Origin: a virus
Reading direction: 5' to 3' (one strand)
Virus record (IMG/VR): IMGVR_UViG_3300045921_000443
Location: 1-42,195 of that record
DNA length: 42,195 nt
Part shown: piece after piece, positions 4,355 through 40,908 of the stretch
Position numbering within the stretch: the first letter of the stretch is position 1
Layout: every line of letters starts with the position of its first letter
Translations under genes and position numbers: made by a program
Notes under the pieces: model-generated
Databases searched by the model: none
What the model saw: only the letters and a program-made list of their open reading frames with translations
What the model was told of the DNA's origin: nothing

Positions 4355-7300
4355 ATGTCTAAAAAAAATATTCCTAATATTCCTACAGGCCAAGATGCTA
4401 TTAAAGGAGGTATCTTTTTTGGTAGTGCATTAACCCCTGGTGGTGCTTTTTCAAATGTTCCTAAAACTACTACAGTTGATGTTGTCCCTACAACTGCTCA
4501 AAAAGAAAAAATGATCTTAACCTTGGAAAGGGTTAAAGAAGCATTAAAACTTAATGCTAAATTAGAAAAACGAGCTACTGATGATGTTTTATCAGAAGAG
4601 GTAATTAATACTTTCTTAAACAATTATGTTCAATTATTAATTGATTATTCTGATTTGCGCAATTATGTTTTTTTCGGAAGTGCTTATAATGAATTAGTAT
4701 ATCATATTAATTATTTAATATTAAATTATCCTTATAAAGTATATTTTGCGAAAAATGCTGGACCAAATTCAGTAAACCCTTTAAATCAAATTAGTATTAC
4801 TTATCCTGGTGGAAATACATCTATTATTACGTTAGAGTATAATAATGTAATATTCCCTGCTAGTTACGATTATACTTTATCAGGAGAAACACAATGGTTA
4901 GATTTTGAAATTGTAGATTCTTTAAATAATAGATTTAAAATAACTAATATTAATTTTATAGATACAGTTTTAAATATTAGTAATGCAACTAACACTTCTC
5001 CTATTATAATTACAACAACAACAAATCATGGTTTAAAATCAGGTGATATAGTAACTATTGAAGGGGTATCAGGAAACACTGCAGCTAATGGCCGTCACCA
5101 AATACAAACTATTGATATTGGTCCAGGAATCGGAGTATTAACTTCAGGGCAAACTTATGTAGTTATATCTGCTTCTGCTACTTATGATTCTAATAATTAT
5201 TTACAAGGGCAAACTTTTACTGCAAACATAAACACCGATTTAAATGCAGGAATTGTAGCGCCAGCCAATCAATTTAGATTAGTAGGTACTACAGGCAATG
5301 GAACATATACTACTGGGGGAATTATTAAATTAAAAGAAATTAATATTACTGTTGATGGTATAATTGGTTTAAATAATTTAATAGATTATTCTCCTAACGT
5401 GGGTGATTTATATAAAGGACTAATTATATCTCCGACACTAAAAGCAATAACAGATTTTGAATTAAAATTAGAAGGTCCACAAAAAGAATTACTTAATCCC
5501 AATAATCCTACCCCTTGGCCTAGAGAGCCAATTACAAATAATATAATTATAAAAGGGCAAACTTTTGAAACTTGGATTGAAGCTCCAACTAATTTAGTAT
5601 CTAATTATGATCCTGAAACATTAGGTCTCGATTCAATAGAAGGAGAAGGTTTAAATCTAACAGGTGCAATAACTTTAGATTCAACTGGTACAACAAATCA
5701 ATTATTAGTTCGTTCTCTGCCACATAGAGTTGTAGATGAACTAAGAGATACAGATGATAAGTTGTTTACAAGATTTGTTTATTTAGCAGGTAAATTATTT
5801 GATTCTATCAAAGTATATATTGATTTTTTAAAATATACTAAATCATTAAATTATACTCCATTTAATCAATTATCTCCTGAGTTTTATAAATTATATGCCG
5901 AACACTATGGATTTGATTTATTTGATGAAGATAATATTGATCTTGCTAAATCTATTATTCGAACAGAACCAGGCATTAAATATAATAATAATCAAATAGT
6001 TTTTAGTGACACTACTAATAGTAAAACATTAAAAGAATTACAATATGAAAAACAAAAAAGATTATTGATAAATTTATTTTATTTATATCAAACTAAAGGT
6101 ACTTTAAAATGTGTTGAACAATTAGTTAAATTAATTGGGTCTCCTGAAGGATTAGTGTTATTTAATGAATATGTATTAAACACAAATCTTTCTCAAAGAG
6201 AAATAGATAATGATAAAGTTAAAATACCTAAACTAGGTTATGAAATTGACCCGGATTATTTATTAGATAAAGTTAATATTTCTAACCCTATAAATTTACC
6301 ATATGTTTATAGATTAAAATTAGATAATGATGATATTGTTAACCTTAGAGAATTAGATGCAGTTACTGACCCGCAAGGTGCTGTTCAATCACAAGTTATT
6401 AAGTGGGGAAAACAATTACACCAATATGGATATTTTAGTCATAATCATTTCGCTAATTTACAATCAAATGATCCAAATGGTTATTATTTATTACCTCTTA
6501 CTTTCCCAGATAAATATTGTGGTATAACAACAGAATATGTTATTCCTCGCGGTGGTTATAAACAACTAATCGGACAAGGATTTGATGAGGCGTCTATACA
6601 CATTGGAAGTTTATTCGATGTAGATGCAATTAGTTATGATACTAATGGACAACCTATTAAGATAAACACTAACTCAAATTATGTTTATGAATTACCACAA
6701 GTATTTGCAGAAAGTATTACTGGTAATAATAATGCTATCCCTATCCAAGGTAAAGGAGAATTTGAAATAATAGGTGTAGAGACTGGTTTATTAGAAATAA
6801 CTGTTAATAACATTACAATTGGTTCTACTAACTGGTTGACTACTCCTAAAGACACTGCTTTAGCATTAGTTAAAGATATTAATTTAAACAATCCTAATTT
6901 TGAAGCTTCTTTAAGAATTAACCCTTCTTCAGTAAGTGTAATTATTCAATCTAATAAAAATTATACTTTACCAAATAATTCTGTTTTAGAAATATTAACA
7001 AACTCAAATTATTCAAATGTAGTTAATATTGATCCTGCCGTTCAAATTGGAGGCGATGCAGCACTTACTATGTCTAATCAAAATACAAGTACTAATTCTA
7101 GACAATATATTATTGCTAAATTAGAAGGAAAAGATTTAGTAGTAAGATTAAAAATGGTTACAGAAAACCCATCTATTACACCTACTATCCAACATAGAGT
7201 AGCAATATTTGAAAACTTATTTGATGACGATGGATTAAATCATCAATTACGCTTAATTTATAGACCAGAAGGGGTAGAAGTATATCAAGATTTAAAATAT

Positions 7301-8908
7301 TTAGGGTTAGCACGTTGGAGAAATCCAAATACGATTTTAGGTGGTTATAACTCTTTAACTTTACCTCATTCTAAAATATTAAATTGTACTCCACAACCAT
7401 TACCTGATATTTTTGCATATCCTAACAATAATAATATACAAGATAATTTTAGATGGTGGGATTTATTAATTGGGTTACCGGTTAATATAGATTTATTTTT
7501 TAAACGAGTAAGTGTTTGGGAAAGTTTAACTATTGATCATCCAGATAGTATTGATAAAGGATTCGATGCTAGCGGATTAGAGGTAGAAAAATATAATTTT
7601 AGTTTTTCTAATCAGCAAAAAATTAATAATATATATGTTAAACAGAATTGTAAAGTCCCTGCACTTTATAAAGCTCCTTTTCCTGATCCTGCTTTAACAA
7701 CTATTACAACAGATCTATTTACTAATTTATTTTTAACCTATCCTAATAATATCATAACTGATATTAATTTAGTTAATCAAAATAGATTAGGTGGTAATTT
7801 TATTTTTACTGAAGATATACAAAACTTTTTTAAACTACCTAATAATCAAATTATAACTATTGATAGTTTATTTACATTCAATGGATGGACAAATACTATT
7901 CATAAAGATTATGAATATGATAGGTTTAATAAAGTATATGAAAATTATCAATTATATTCTGAACAAGTATTAACTTATTTAGCGCTTCTACCTTTTATGG
8001 AATTAGTAGAAGATAAGTTTAAACAATTAGTTAGACAATTTATTCCAATAGTTATTAACATTACTCGCTTTGGAAGATTAATAAGAAGTTTAGAAAGAAG
8101 AAAAGTTAGATATGTCAATATACACAAACAATGTTTAGCAAACATTGAAGGAGTATTTGGGATTGGGGGATTTAGAATTACACATGGAACAAATAATCAT
8201 TATTTACAAAATAATAATTATTTTAATTTATACTTTGTAACTAATTATGATATAGTTAATGCTTCTAATACTCCTACAATTACTATTACTACAGCACAAC
8301 CTCATAACCTATCTTCAGGATATCAAGTTAATATTAGTGGCGTAATAGGTAATACAAATGCTAATGGTACACATATTATAACAGTTACAGGACCTAATAC
8401 CTTTACAATTCCTGTTTCTGGTAATGGTAATTATTTAGCAGGGGGAACTGTAGAATATGAAGTAGTATGGTTAAATGGTAATTATGGAAGTATAGAATGG
8501 CAATTTTCTAATATATACACCGCTGATTTAACAGCAAGTGTTTTAACGTCTGAATGGGATTCTAATTTTATGCACCCTATTCCTTTGTTAACTGCAGAAT
8601 ATGAAAATAATGCAGTTAAATTAATAGTTAATCCAAATGAGTTTTTAGATCGTTTTAATTTTGAATTAAATGATTGTAAACTTAAAATTGTAACTTCTGG
8701 AGAAGTAATAATTGATAGTATTATTTCACCTAATAATAGTGTGAGAAGTAATAACGTTCCTAATAGCTGCGTATCTATAACCTATAGTGCTCCTAATATA
8801 ATTTTAAACTCAAATACTAATACTTACATATATTTTCAATCAGAAAACCAACCTAATACATTTATTTATTTGAATAGTGAAGGTTTAAATCCAACTTATA
8901 TTTATTAG
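4355..8908 (+). CDS. Large tail/baseplate protein with gpI-like and FCCH-like modules
   Basis: The largest protein here, 1517 aa. Residues ~470-600 hold an alpha-helical segment (RFVYLAGKLFDSIKVYIDFL, then LYAEHYGFDLFDED, then KRLLINLFYLYQTKGTLKCV) resembling the P2 gpI-type tail-protein module, in which a helical bundle is followed by a short 'TKGT' turn. Two beta-modules of the type often annotated as E1 FCCH-like in phage tails lie at ~207-320 (ITTTTNHGLKSGDIVTIEGV) and ~1300-1368 (ITTAQPHNLSSGYQVNISGV). The first copy carries an insertion of roughly 45 residues. A long helical stretch lies at ~1190-1250. I infer a baseplate or tail-tip scaffold that anchors receptor-contacting parts. Confidence 0.75.
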   Translation: MSKKNIPNIPTGQDAIKGGIFFGSALTPGGAFSNVPKTTTVDVVPTTAQKEKMILTLERVKEALKLNAKLEKRATDDVLSEEVINTFLNNYVQLLIDYSDLRNYVFFGSAYNELVYHINYLILNYPYKVYFAKNAGPNSVNPLNQISITYPGGNTSIITLEYNNVIFPASYDYTLSGETQWLDFEIVDSLNNRFKITNINFIDTVLNISNATNTSPIIITTTTNHGLKSGDIVTIEGVSGNTAANGRHQIQTIDIGPGIGVLTSGQTYVVISASATYDSNNYLQGQTFTANINTDLNAGIVAPANQFRLVGTTGNGTYTTGGIIKLKEINITVDGIIGLNNLIDYSPNVGDLYKGLIISPTLKAITDFELKLEGPQKELLNPNNPTPWPREPITNNIIIKGQTFETWIEAPTNLVSNYDPETLGLDSIEGEGLNLTGAITLDSTGTTNQLLVRSLPHRVVDELRDTDDKLFTRFVYLAGKLFDSIKVYIDFLKYTKSLNYTPFNQLSPEFYKLYAEHYGFDLFDEDNIDLAKSIIRTEPGIKYNNNQIVFSDTTNSKTLKELQYEKQKRLLINLFYLYQTKGTLKCVEQLVKLIGSPEGLVLFNEYVLNTNLSQREIDNDKVKIPKLGYEIDPDYLLDKVNISNPINLPYVYRLKLDNDDIVNLRELDAVTDPQGAVQSQVIKWGKQLHQYGYFSHNHFANLQSNDPNGYYLLPLTFPDKYCGITTEYVIPRGGYKQLIGQGFDEASIHIGSLFDVDAISYDTNGQPIKINTNSNYVYELPQVFAESITGNNNAIPIQGKGEFEIIGVETGLLEITVNNITIGSTNWLTTPKDTALALVKDINLNNPNFEASLRINPSSVSVIIQSNKNYTLPNNSVLEILTNSNYSNVVNIDPAVQIGGDAALTMSNQNTSTNSRQYIIAKLEGKDLVVRLKMVTENPSITPTIQHRVAIFENLFDDDGLNHQLRLIYRPEGVEVYQDLKYLGLARWRNPNTILGGYNSLTLPHSKILNCTPQPLPDIFAYPNNNNIQDNFRWWDLLIGLPVNIDLFFKRVSVWESLTIDHPDSIDKGFDASGLEVEKYNFSFSNQQKINNIYVKQNCKVPALYKAPFPDPALTTITTDLFTNLFLTYPNNIITDINLVNQNRLGGNFIFTEDIQNFFKLPNNQIITIDSLFTFNGWTNTIHKDYEYDRFNKVYENYQLYSEQVLTYLALLPFMELVEDKFKQLVRQFIPIVINITRFGRLIRSLERRKVRYVNIHKQCLANIEGVFGIGGFRITHGTNNHYLQNNNYFNLYFVTNYDIVNASNTPTITITTAQPHNLSSGYQVNISGVIGNTNANGTHIITVTGPNTFTIPVSGNGNYLAGGTVEYEVVWLNGNYGSIEWQFSNIYTADLTASVLTSEWDSNFMHPIPLLTAEYENNAVKLIVNPNEFLDRFNFELNDCKLKIVTSGEVIIDSIISPNNSVRSNNVPNSCVSITYSAPNIILNSNTNTYIYFQSENQPNTFIYLNSEGLNPTYIY

Positions 8909-10561: not shown

Positions 10562-10631
10562 AATTATTAAACAAAAATAATAACAATATTACTATTAATA
10601 ATTAATACCTATATTATTATTCTGTGAAGCG

Positions 10632-10668
10632 CCTAAAAGCTAAAGACTTTTAGGTTTTCTTTGAGAAC
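10632..10668 (+). terminator. Dispersed hairpin element, copy 1
   Basis: CCTAAAAG (10632-10639) and CTTTTAGG (10647-10654) form a perfect 8-bp stem with a 7-nt loop, followed by TTTTCTTTGAGAAC. It lies 3' of the last plus-strand gene in this block. The hairpin followed by a T-rich tract is terminator-like on the plus strand. The same element recurs at 15510, 15886, 16667, 16968 and 30394 (degenerate forms elsewhere). Confidence 0.5.
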
Positions 10669-10705
10669 TTTATAAAATATTCACAAAATATTATATACCT
10701 TTTTT

Positions 10706-15497: not shown

Positions 15498-15509
15498 CTT
15501 TTTATATAG

Positions 15510-15546
15510 CCTAAAAGCTAAAGACTTTTAGGTTTTCTTTGAGAAC
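15510..15546 (+). repeat. Dispersed hairpin element, copy 2
   Basis: Stem CCTAAAAG / CTTTTAGG with a 7-nt loop, followed by TTTTCTTTGAGAAC, identical in core to the copy at 10632. Here it lies on the plus strand inside a minus-strand gene region, so it opposes local transcription. Its reverse complement supplies the last codons and stop of the small membrane ORF at 15518-15634. Confidence 0.6.
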
Positions 15547-15634
15547 TATATAAAAACCAAGTTAATAAGCGATCTACAAAATAAGTTGTTCCACTAAATG
15601 CTAAAAAGAAAATTATTGTTAATATCAATTTCAT
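15518..15634 (-). CDS. Possible 38-aa membrane peptide
   Basis: ATG at 15634 to TAG at 15518. The first ~21 residues (MKLILTIIFFLAFSGTTYFV) form a signal-anchor-like hydrophobic segment; the end SSQRKPKSL is basic and is encoded by the hairpin element. Small single-span proteins are common in phage accessory regions. There is an A-rich leader. Moderate confidence because of size. Confidence 0.45.
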   Translation of the reverse strand: MKLILTIIFFLAFSGTTYFVDRLLTWFLYSSQRKPKSL

Positions 15635-16609: not shown

Positions 16610-16666
16610 TTTTAAAACTTTTTATATGTTTTTTTTGTCTTTATTTTATGTTTTGAATTTTATATA

Positions 16667-30279: not shown

Positions 30280-30393
30280 CATATTCTATTTACCTCGAAT
30301 ATGGAAGGTTTTACATATATAAAAATAATATAATTTTAAAACAATAACTAAATTATTTATACTTTTTTTTTAAAAAAATATACCCAAATTTAT

Positions 30394-30430
30394 TCTAAAA
30401 GCTAAAGATTTTTAGGTTTTCTTTGAGAGC
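30394..30430 (+). repeat. Dispersed hairpin element, copy next to a start codon
   Basis: Stem CTAAAAG / TTTTTAG with loop CTAAAGA, then GTTTTCTTTGAGAGC. Its last base is 7 nt before the ATG at 30438, so it is a leader element here, in contrast to the terminator-like positions elsewhere. Confidence 0.6.
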
Positions 30431-30437
30431 TTTATAA

Positions 30438-30887
30438 ATGAGTATTATTAAACAACCACAAAGATATTTGGCGTTAGATTTAAAAGAAGGATCTAATGCT
30501 GTAGTACATTTTCTACCTATGAAAAAAAAACTTATAGGAATTCAATTAGAATTAGATCCTAAATTAAACATTTTAAACCCTAAAATAAGTTTAGAAAACA
30601 TTGGGGTTACCGAGCGCAAAAAAGTTGAATTATTTGTAGAAAAGATAATTGATAAAGTGATTACAAAAGGTAATATATACACTTTATATAGTTATTTATT
30701 CTTATATAAACGCGGCAAATTTTACTTATTATCTGTTAGTTATAACAATTACTCTTTAGCATATTCTACCGTGGTGGAAATTGCTAAAGAATTAGGATTA
30801 AATTATCTTTTACCACAATGGAAGGGTATTTACACTAAACAAAAACTATTCTCTTTTATAGAAGATATTTTTGTACAAAAATTATAG
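30438..30887 (+). CDS. Hypothetical protein at the head of the replication block
   Basis: A 149-aa alpha/beta protein: beta-rich first half (NAVVHFLPMKKKLIGIQLEL), helical centre (KKVELFVEKIIDKVI), an FYLLSVSYN strand and an end ELGLNYLLPQWKGIYT. No recognised domain. It stands ~125 bp before the next gene and is preceded by 314 bp of structured non-coding sequence, so it may be a regulated early gene. Confidence 0.65.
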   Translation: MSIIKQPQRYLALDLKEGSNAVVHFLPMKKKLIGIQLELDPKLNILNPKISLENIGVTERKKVELFVEKIIDKVITKGNIYTLYSYLFLYKRGKFYLLSVSYNNYSLAYSTVVEIAKELGLNYLLPQWKGIYTKQKLFSFIEDIFVQKL

Positions 30888-34363: not shown

Positions 34364-35701
34364 ATGACAGAAATTAAAGAAATACAAGAAACATTAGATA
34401 AAGATTTTAGTAAATACGGACAAAAGTTTCAATTAGCACTTTTATCTTTATTAATCCAAGATCGATCTTTTGCTAATAATATTAGACTAATATTATCTCC
34501 AGAATATTTTGATAACATTTATTGTCAAAATATTTGTAGAATGATATTAGATTATATGAATACTTATCATAGTGTGCCAGATTTTGAAACTTTAAAAATG
34601 ATTATTGAAACAGATAATGAAATAGTATCTACTAAAGTTTATTTGATGACTTTAGATTCAATTATCAAAGCTAACCTATCTAATAGAGAATTTATTCAAC
34701 AAGAAGCTCAAAAGTTTTGTTTTACTAAATTTGCTTTAAAAAAAATAGAAGAAGAAACAGCATTAATACTTAAAGGAGATTTTGAAAAAGCGCGTAATGT
34801 TTCTTTTGTAAAATATAAACCTGTAAACACAGGAGTAAAAGAATATGATTTAAAGAAGGATTACAATTTAGTATTACAAGAAAAAGTAAATATCCCCGTA
34901 CCTACTAATTTACCTTCTATTAATAAAATTTCACAAGGTGGTCCAGGTGCTGGAAATTTATGTATTGTAGTAGCTCAATCAAACTTCGGAAAAAGCAATT
35001 ATTTAGTTTCTCTAGCACAAGGGGCAGCTAAAGATGGTAAAAAGGTTGTTTATTTTAGTTTAGAAACAGACGGTGTACAATTAATGCAAAGAGCTATTGC
35101 AAATTTATCTAATTTACAACAAGAATTATTAAAAGAACACCCTTTATTAATAAAAGAAAAAATAGATAAGCTTAAAGGAAATATAAAACTTATTGAATTA
35201 AAATCAATTGACGCTTATGTAGATAAGTTAAAAATGTTAATTGATGAAATGAAAGCAGATAATTTTTTTCCTGAACTTATTATTGTTGATGGGCTTAATC
35301 AAGTTAAAGCACCATTACACTTAAAATTTACCAATTCAAATGATAAGTTTGAATATCTAGCAGAAGAACTAAGAGATTTAGCTAAGGAAGAACAGATTCC
35401 CATTTGGTGCGCTTTCCAACAAAACAGGTGTTTATCTCTTGATACTAAAGTAGAAACACCAGATGGAACTAAATTGCTTAAAGACTTAAAAGAAGGTGAG
35501 TTAATTTTAACTCACGAAGGGTTTAAAAAAGTTTTAAAAGTGTACCCGGTTGAAAAACAGCCAGTATATAAAATAAAAATGAAAAGCGGTGAAGAAATTA
35601 TATGTTCAATTAATCACGAGTTCCCTACCCCCAATGGATTAAAAAGTATTAAAAACGGACTGAAAGTTGGAGATCAGTTCTTTTTAAAAAGAAAAGATTA
35701 A
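34364..35701 (+). CDS. dnaB: Replicative helicase N-part fused to N-intein
   Basis: The 445-aa product has two parts. Residues 1-355 are the N-terminal ~75% of a DnaB/gp41-type helicase: N-terminal helical domain, Walker A AQSNFGKSN (204-212), FSLET with the catalytic Glu (231-235), Walker B IIVDG (306-310), ending in motif FQQNR. C356 starts an intein: CLSLDTKVETPDG (block A), then block B EEIICSINHEFPTPNG, ending GDQFFLKRKD before the stop. It resembles the split inteins of phage gp41 helicases (gp41-8-like), inserted after the conserved 'QxNR' of the helicase loop. Splicing with the 35761 product gives a ~464-aa helicase. Confidence 0.9.
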   Translation: MTEIKEIQETLDKDFSKYGQKFQLALLSLLIQDRSFANNIRLILSPEYFDNIYCQNICRMILDYMNTYHSVPDFETLKMIIETDNEIVSTKVYLMTLDSIIKANLSNREFIQQEAQKFCFTKFALKKIEEETALILKGDFEKARNVSFVKYKPVNTGVKEYDLKKDYNLVLQEKVNIPVPTNLPSINKISQGGPGAGNLCIVVAQSNFGKSNYLVSLAQGAAKDGKKVVYFSLETDGVQLMQRAIANLSNLQQELLKEHPLLIKEKIDKLKGNIKLIELKSIDAYVDKLKMLIDEMKADNFFPELIIVDGLNQVKAPLHLKFTNSNDKFEYLAEELRDLAKEEQIPIWCAFQQNRCLSLDTKVETPDGTKLLKDLKEGELILTHEGFKKVLKVYPVEKQPVYKIKMKSGEEIICSINHEFPTPNGLKSIKNGLKVGDQFFLKRKD

Positions 35702-35760
35702 TTTAAAGATAACTTAAGTAATAGATTTAGATTCGCAGGAAAACATATATAAACCTTAAA

Positions 35761-36228
35761 ATGAATTTTATGTTAAATTTAGAAAATCTAAGACTTGAAG
35801 AAATAGAAAGTATCGAATTACTAGGAGAACAGCCTACCGTTGATATTACTGTAGAAGATACACATATGTTTTTTGCTAATGGAATTTATACTCATAATAG
35901 TGGGTACAACAAAGAAATTGCAGATGAACAAAATATAGGTAAAGCAATCGAAGTATATCAAGTGTGTGATTTTATGCTTATGTTCACACAGTCTATTCCT
36001 CAACAGGAACAAGGTGAGTGTTATGTACAAGTTTTAAAAAATCGTTTAGGTCCTAAAGGTTTGATGTTAAAATTAAAATACGATCCTAATAGAGTATTGT
36101 TTATGGAGCTAGAAACAGTACAACGTAGTTTGTTATATGACAAACAAATGAAAGAAACTACATTACAGGGATTAGATATCGCTAGAAAAAAACTAGACGA
36201 AATTCGTAGCAAAAAACAGGATAAATAA
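35761..36228 (+). CDS. dnaB: C-intein fused to replicative helicase C-part
   Basis: A 155-aa protein. Residues 1-46 are the C-intein: EEIESIELLGEQPTVDITVE (block F), HMFFANGIYTHN (block G, with the final N46). The next residue is S47, the +1 nucleophile, then SGYNKEIADEQNIGKAIEVY and the rest of the helicase C-terminal domain (109 aa: VCDFMLMF, NRLGPKG). The start ATG gives a short N-terminal sequence, as in other C-inteins. It lies 59 nt after the N-part stop in another frame. The spliced helicase is about the length of T4 gp41. Confidence 0.9.
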   Translation: MNFMLNLENLRLEEIESIELLGEQPTVDITVEDTHMFFANGIYTHNSGYNKEIADEQNIGKAIEVYQVCDFMLMFTQSIPQQEQGECYVQVLKNRLGPKGLMLKLKYDPNRVLFMELETVQRSLLYDKQMKETTLQGLDIARKKLDEIRSKKQDK

Positions 36229-39848: not shown

Positions 39849-40844
39849 ATGAAAAACCCAAAAGTAATAGCAGAAATAAAAAAAATAATTAAAAATTTAA
39901 ACTTAAATTGTACTTTAAAAGAATTTAAAGATAAAGTAAATTGGAATTATATTTCAGAATATCAAAATCTATCTGAAGATTTTATAAAAGAGTTTAAAGA
40001 TAAAGTAAATTGGGATTATATTTCAATGTATCAAAAATTGTCAGAAAAATTTATTAAAGAATTTAAAAATAAAGTAAATTGGCGTTGGATTTCAATACAT
40101 CAAAAATTATCTGAAGATTTCATAAAAGAATTTCGAGATAAAGTAGATTGACATTGTATTTCAATACATCAGAAACTATCTGAAGATTTTATTAAAGAAT
40201 TTAAAGATAAAGTAAATTGGTATTATGTTTCAACATGTCAAAAACTATCTGAAAAGTTTATAAGAGAATTTCAAGATAAAATGAATTGGAATTGTATTTC
40301 AATACATCAAAACTTATCTGAAGATTTCATAAGAGAATTTAAAGACAAAGTAGATTGGATTAATATTTCAACGTATCAAAAACTATCTGAAAAGTTTATA
40401 AAAGAGTTTAAAGATTATGTAGATTGGAATTGTGTTTCAACGTATCAAAAACTATCTAAGAAATTTATCAAAGAATTTAATTTAAAAATTTCTGAAGATA
40501 ACTGGTTATATAAATCTACTAAATATAAACTAGATAAACTATTAAAACCAGGTAAATATAAATTAAATGATGAAGGTTATTTTGTAGGTTATAAAGGAAT
40601 TAGAATTGACAGATATTCTAAGTTTAGCTTTCAATATCAATATTTAAAAAATCATGTTTATGAAAGCACAGCCGATTTTACAGATAATGAAAACTCATTT
40701 GGTTTATCAGTGGGTACTTATGATTATGCTGAAAATTACTGTAATGAATTAGTTATAGAAGTATGGTTTAAACCTAAGGATATAGCTAGAATAGTAAAAG
40801 ATGGGGAAAAGATAAGAGTTACTAAATTTTTGGTTAAAAGTTAA
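39849..40844 (+). pseudogene. Repeat protein interrupted by one TGA
   Basis: The frame from 39849 to 40844 (332 codons) is open except for a TGA at 40149-40151. The stop replaces a Trp codon in the repeat unit: units of ~23 residues run LSEDFIKEFKDKVNWDYISM..., 'NW' or 'DW' being followed by a hydrophobic/aromatic stretch. About eight units are seen, alternating LSED and LSEK starts, four on each side of the stop. The C-terminal domain (YKGIRIDRYSKFSFQYQYL ... IARIVKDGEKIRVTKFLV) is that seen after such repeats in other phage proteins. As the gene stands it would give a 100-aa fragment and possibly a re-start at 40281 (187 aa). Confidence 0.7.
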
Positions 40845-40873
40845 AATTTTGCGGGTTTTCTTTAAGAAAATAT

Positions 40874-40908
40874 AAAAAAAAGGAGACAATTATATCTCCT
40901 TTTTTTTA
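40874..40908. terminator. Bidirectional rho-independent terminator
   Basis: An A8-GGAGA arm (40874-40886) pairs with TCTCC-T8 (40895-40907) around an 8-nt loop. It sits between the repeat gene and the 40921 gene. Confidence 0.85.

What the first reader, a model, noticed from the sequence alone, without database searches (positions are those of the whole stretch)
34364..36228. Naturally split intein in the replicative helicase, encoded by two adjacent genes
The helicase is in two pieces: residues 1-355 plus an N-intein of 90 aa, and a C-intein of 46 aa plus the last 109 residues. The splice-site residues (C356, H-N46, S47) are all present. The two genes are 59 nt apart and in different frames, so trans-splicing is needed to rebuild the ATPase. 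The insertion point follows FQQNR, the helicase loop motif, as in the known gp41-8-type split inteins of phages. No homing endonuclease lies between the halves. It is a new-looking sequence for a small group and might splice fast.
Basis: partly seen in the sequence, partly recalled or inferred. Interest (0 to 1): 0.75.

Follow-up and report, generated by a model that had tools for sequence, protein, structure and literature searches.

The report
Split helicase intein, endonuclease gene lost
A phage's DNA-unwinding enzyme is encoded as two separate proteins that a split self-splicing element should stitch together; a nearly identical phage still carries a selfish DNA-cutting gene between the two halves, so this locus is most likely what remains after that gene was lost, which is a further case of a known arrangement.

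Summary
Window 34364-35701 encodes helicase residues 1-355 plus a 90-aa N-intein. Window 35761-36228 encodes a 46-aa C-intein plus 109 helicase residues. All splice-site residues are present and the halves are homologous to the solved gp41-1 intein. The joined 464-aa exteins align without a gap to intein-free phage helicases. Trans-splicing is inferred, not shown.

The claim that no endonuclease lies between the halves is true only of this allele. L001, about 98.5% identical over 9.98 kb, has a 406-codon EDxHD (VSR-like) homing-endonuclease gene in the gap. The window keeps 39 nt in its place: a probable in-frame vestige, IDLDSQENIYKP*, of the endonuclease's first and last codons. The next closest relatives (L006, L068) also carry the endonuclease, and its tree agrees with the helicase tree, so loss in the window is the best reading.

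In 58 distinct inteined loci from viral contigs every intein is split. Endonuclease states run from intact through broken and fragmentary to a few codons, scattered over the tree. This is a new member of the known 'fractured gene' kind. The useful parts are the matched endonuclease-plus and -minus pair and, in passing, helicases in three pieces with two split inteins.

The parts
34364..35428 (+). helicase N-extein, 355 aa (Walker A AQSNFGKS, Walker B D309, sensor loop FQQNR)
35429..35701 (+). N-intein, 90 aa, Cys1 = C356, ends at TAA 35699-35701
35662..35744 (+). tract of high divergence from sister phage L001 (24/83 differences against 126/9893 elsewhere)
35702..35760 (+). gap between the two genes; in L001 the same place holds a 1,221-bp homing-endonuclease gene
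35721..35759 (+). probable in-frame endonuclease vestige IDLDSQENIYKP*; 35721-35733 matches the endonuclease start (ATGAATTTAGATT, 11/13), 35748-35759 equals its last three codons plus stop
   Evidence: pairwise with L001 only; a general tail profile does not detect it
35761..35898 (+). C-intein, 46 aa, ends THN
35899..36228 (+). helicase C-extein, 109 aa, begins S47 (+1), carries KNRLG arginine-finger motif, plus stop

Best explanation
The gp41/DnaB-type replicative helicase of a T4-like phage is made as two polypeptides, each carrying half of a class-1 intein. The halves bind each other, probably helped by charge (basic N-intein, acidic C-intein). The protein then splices in trans (C356 acyl shift, transfer to S47, N46 cyclization) into a 464-aa helicase that unites Walker A/B with the C-terminal arginine-finger motif. 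The gene was once broken by a free-standing EDxHD (VSR-like) homing-endonuclease gene inside the intein. In the window's lineage that endonuclease was lost by an internal in-frame deletion that left 12 codons and a stop, while the split remained because both halves keep their own stop and start. Shown by sequence: the two genes, intein motifs and junctions, the allelic endonuclease in a near-identical phage, the distribution over relatives. Inferred: trans-splicing, endonuclease activity, direction and cause of the loss, and the recombination behind the diverged tract.
For: Intein and helicase family matches; invariant catalytic residues; gap-free joined extein against intein-free helicases. 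L001 is about 98.5% identical over 9.98 kb with 1,182 bp more exactly in the gap, an intact 406-codon ORF; the profile of its family matches 3r3p, a mobile-intron nuclease, E 8e-7. The vestige has the same 19-nt distance to the N-intein stop and 1-nt distance to the C-intein ATG as the L001 endonuclease, and runs in frame from start position to stop. L006 and L068, next in the helicase tree, carry the endonuclease, and the endonuclease tree joins L001, L006 and L068. Other endonuclease-less loci keep endonuclease tails: L014, L023, L029, L024, L002 0 of 1000 shuffles as good, L022 2, L027 8, L008 40 of 1000; L012 keeps a 5' piece. All 58 loci are split; N-intein net charge positive and C-intein negative in 58 of 58.
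Against: No splicing, expression or cleavage data. The window's own vestige is short; a general endonuclease-tail profile does not detect it (781 of 1000 shuffles as good), so it rests on the pairwise comparison with L001 and on parsimony. The diverged tract suggests that one of the two alleles was recombined, so L001 could have regained its endonuclease by homing. L036 lacks a significant tail as well.
Confidence: 0.85

Rival explanations
1. The window shows the empty, never-invaded state of a split intein; the endonuclease of L001 inserted into this gap later, and the sequence shared at its two ends is target-site flank.
For: The 12 nt before the C-intein start codon are identical in both alleles; the window vestige is not found by a general tail profile; the diverged tract next to the insertion fits homing with co-conversion into L001.
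Against: L006 and L068 carry the endonuclease and its tree agrees with the helicase tree; endonuclease tails of other clades (L045 FIKENIYE, L070 FIKENY, L075 FIKENI) resemble the window's QENIYKP; most other endonuclease-less loci keep detectable relics; shared ends that supply both start and stop codon by chance are unlikely.
Confidence: 0.14
2. The gap is an assembly artefact or frameshift within a contiguous intein, or the locus is a dying pseudogene.
For: Single metagenomic contig; no reads were available.
Against: Same split position in all 58 distinct loci; the contig L001 is split too; the gap sequence is unique, not a truncated copy of L001; both ORFs are intact with all catalytic residues and the helicase is 98-99% conserved against L001.
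Confidence: 0.02
3. The two proteins act as a two-subunit helicase without splicing, the intein halves serving only as a docking device.
For: Activity is untested.
Against: Cys1, block-B His, His-Asn and +1 Ser are all kept and invariant among relatives, which docking alone would not require.
Confidence: 0.04

Closest known systems
gp41-1 split intein (6qaz, 6riz), cyanophage-like helicase gp41
   Same: Same class-1 signature, same split position (about 88-90 aa plus about 37-46 aa), same host protein; E 6e-19 and 4e-5
   Different: Its site is, by the TRSGF|S loci L133 and L186 and its native SSS junction (PMC7090010), 3 residues downstream of the NR|S site used here; the intein sequences are clearly diverged
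gp41-8 split intein
   Different: No gp41-8 sequence could be compared with these tools
'Fractured genes' of Dassa et al. 2009 (doi 10.1093/nar/gkp095; not held here, content from memory)
   Same: Enzyme gene split by a split intein with a free-standing VSR-like endonuclease gene between the halves, remnants in some loci; L001 and most relatives found here are of this kind
   Different: The window allele itself has lost the endonuclease; the near-identical endonuclease-plus allele is the added value
I-Bth0305I / EDxHD homing endonucleases (3r3p)
   Same: Nuclease domain of the endonuclease in L001 and relatives matches
   Different: Long tandem KYGExxG repeats before the nuclease; absent from the window except for the vestige
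Aeromonas phage PolB1 (Aes123-type) split intein locus
   Same: Records with a VSR endonuclease related to the one in L001 and a split DNA polymerase in such phages
   Different: DNA polymerase instead of helicase; only about 25% identity in the endonuclease

Membership tests
class-1 naturally split intein (gp41 type) | two separate ORFs, each extein plus half intein, split near the usual site | tested here: met
class-1 naturally split intein (gp41 type) | Cys1, block-B S/T-x-x-H, terminal His-Asn, +1 Ser/Thr/Cys | tested here: met
   invariant in aligned relatives
class-1 naturally split intein (gp41 type) | sequence homology to a proven trans-splicing member | tested here: met
   6qaz, E 6e-19 (N half) and 4e-5 (C half)
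class-1 naturally split intein (gp41 type) | splices in trans | not testable with these tools
   needs expression
gp41-8-type insertion | same insertion site and closest kinship to gp41-8 | tested here: inconclusive
fractured gene | free-standing endonuclease gene between the halves | tested here: not met
   absent in the window; present in L001; a probable 39-nt vestige remains, so the window is described as a derivative, not a full member
EDxHD (VSR-like) homing endonuclease, for the L001 ORF | homologous nuclease domain with conserved E, D, H, D residues | tested here: met
EDxHD (VSR-like) homing endonuclease, for the L001 ORF | site-specific cleavage of the endonuclease-less allele | not testable with these tools
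   needs purified enzyme

The most novel reading that the evidence does not exclude
Endonuclease invasion of this intein works as a one-way ratchet: it fractures the helicase gene, is then lost again and again in many phage lineages (and may be regained by homing with co-conversion, as the diverged 83-nt tract suggests), but the gene does not become contiguous again. The window and L001 catch loss or regain within one phage species.
Probability: 0.5. Interest if true: 0.5.

Novelty: new member of a known kind. Interest (0 to 1): 0.38.

Why it matters
It explains how a split intein without an endonuclease can arise: the parasite breaks the gene, leaves, and the host keeps an obligatory trans-splicing step in an essential replication enzyme. 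The closely matched endonuclease-plus and -minus alleles give a ready substrate and control for testing homing into a split intein. The relatives are a large pool of untested split inteins with basic N- and acidic C-halves, including helicases that would need two different trans-splicing reactions.

Tried and rejected
A general endonuclease-tail profile does not detect the window's vestige, so that claim rests on L001 and parsimony. A profile search of GTDB genome contigs gave only one unrelated archaeal intein match, so no host was found. The primary papers on fractured genes and on gp41-8 kinetics are not held. A search of isolated phages with the window's halves found only distant inteins, the best in Shigella phage ESh36. 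Assembly artefact and pseudogene were considered and rejected. No structure prediction was run because sequence homology to a solved intein was sufficient. Direction of the recombination tract could not be settled: the outgroup L006 is only about 49% identical in the N-half.

Full report
What is there. The window is a 42,195-base virus record. Its replication block reads SSB-like protein, UvsX/RecA, 5'-3' exonuclease, helicase, NrdA, NrdB, all on the + strand. The helicase is encoded by two ORFs, 34364-35701 and 35761-36228, in different frames with 59 nt between. The first is helicase residues 1-355 followed by a 90-aa N-intein, the second a 46-aa C-intein followed by 109 helicase residues. 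Both halves match the gp41-1 intein of known structure, and the catalytic residues are invariant among aligned relatives. When the exteins are joined at FQQNR|SGY they align without a gap to intein-free phage helicases, of which 77 loci were found. The C-terminal piece holds the KNRLG motif, so neither piece alone has a complete ATPase (inference from the known helicase motifs).

The sister phage. A viral contig, L001, is 98-99% identical to the window over 9.98 kb. Between the same two intein halves it has an intact 406-codon ORF (L001:6358-7578). Its family has tandem KYGExxG repeats and a C-terminal nuclease domain that matches 3r3p, the nuclease domain of a mobile-intron protein, I-Bth0305I to my knowledge, and weakly DUF559 and REase_MTES_1575. 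It is therefore an EDxHD, VSR-like homing endonuclease by sequence; activity is untested.

The scar. The window lacks about 1,182 bp against L001. What remains at 35721-35759 reads IDLDSQENIYKP* in the endonuclease's frame, against MNLDLF...FIKENYKP* in L001. The distances to the N-intein stop (19 nt) and the C-intein start (1 nt) are the same in both. A general profile of endonuclease tails does not see this short piece, so it is called probable. The tract 35662-35744 differs from L001 at 24 of 83 positions against 126 of 9,893 elsewhere (Fisher p 6e-25). One of the two alleles has therefore been exchanged with a more distant relative, or this stretch evolves unusually fast; homing with co-conversion is a natural explanation but the direction is not settled.

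Relatives. Searches of viral contigs gave 58 distinct loci with an intein at this place of the helicase, the window included (56 right after the NR of the sensor loop and two, L133 and L186, three residues downstream at the gp41-1-type site). All are split, none contiguous. Endonuclease state: 43 one-ORF, 2 broken, 3 fragments, 10 without a detectable domain; L133 and L186, of the other site, are among the last. One search searched with the endonuclease itself, so the share of intact ones is inflated; among the distinct loci, which searched with the C-half, about 12 are intact, 2 broken and 9 reduced. Most reduced loci keep recognisable pieces: NECINFLNN* in L002, DTILNKCKNFIKKENE in L024, EFINENA in L022, whole nuclease domains in L014 and L029, one with an internal stop in L023, a 5' piece in L012. 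In the tree the endonuclease-less loci are scattered, with at least six changes forced by well-supported branches. The window pairs with L001, and next come L006 and L068, both with the endonuclease; the endonuclease tree has the same grouping. Loss in the window is the most parsimonious reading.

How it most likely works. The halves are expressed separately, bind, and splice in trans. In all 58 loci the N-intein is net basic and the C-intein net acidic, which may guide association; from general knowledge the DnaE split inteins have the opposite polarity. Splicing and speed remain to be tested.

What is known. Splitting of phage enzymes by split inteins with a VSR-like endonuclease between, with remnants in some loci, was described by Dassa et al. 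2009 (not held; content from memory, cited by PMC7090010 and PMC6892783). The cycle of endonuclease invasion, decay and loss is standard (PMC3229294, PMC7765530). The finding is therefore a new member of a known kind; the closely matched allelic pair and the breadth of the series are the additions.

Noticed in passing
L011, L024, L079, L088, L144 (and, less clearly, L117): Helicases in three pieces: an atypically split intein inside the P-loop (GVGK|C..., N-part about 54-61 aa, C-part about 125-140 aa ending HN|T/S) with its own endonuclease-like ORF, plus the usual split intein after NR. The middle polypeptide carries a C-intein and an N-intein, so two orthogonal trans-splicing reactions would be needed.
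   Followed up: partly
L003 (ON528746.1, Shigella phage ESh36, record marked UNVERIFIED), 4989-7969: A T4-like phage record with gp41 split by an intein at DIAE|SAGL, a different site, with an unclassified ORF between the halves and Lys instead of His before the terminal Asn.
   Followed up: partly
L050, L053, L056, L057, L066: The same P-loop site carries a one-ORF insertion of about 350-365 aa, long enough for an intein with an internal endonuclease; L026, L029, L038 and L072 have 171-190 aa there.
   Followed up: no
window 39849-40538: 69-nt tandem repeat (7 overlapping placements in register) encoding SxxQxLSEDFIKEFKDKVxW repeats, broken into two ORFs 39849-40151 and 40281-40844.
   Followed up: no
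window 10631-10677, 15509-15555, 30393-30439, 40832-40878; reverse strand near 16659 and 16960: Dispersed 47-nt intergenic element with a hairpin-like core CCTAAAAG...CTTTTAGG, 68-98% identical, possibly a shared terminator or promoter unit.
   Followed up: no
L008:3592-5450: Endonuclease-less locus where the N-intein ORF runs into a tail-like EIKKFLKKNK* and its stop overlaps the C-intein start codon, close to re-fusion.
   Followed up: partly
all 58 inteined helicase loci: N-intein net positive (+1 to +15) and C-intein net negative (-6 to -14) in every case, the reverse of the polarity I know for DnaE split inteins.
   Followed up: partly
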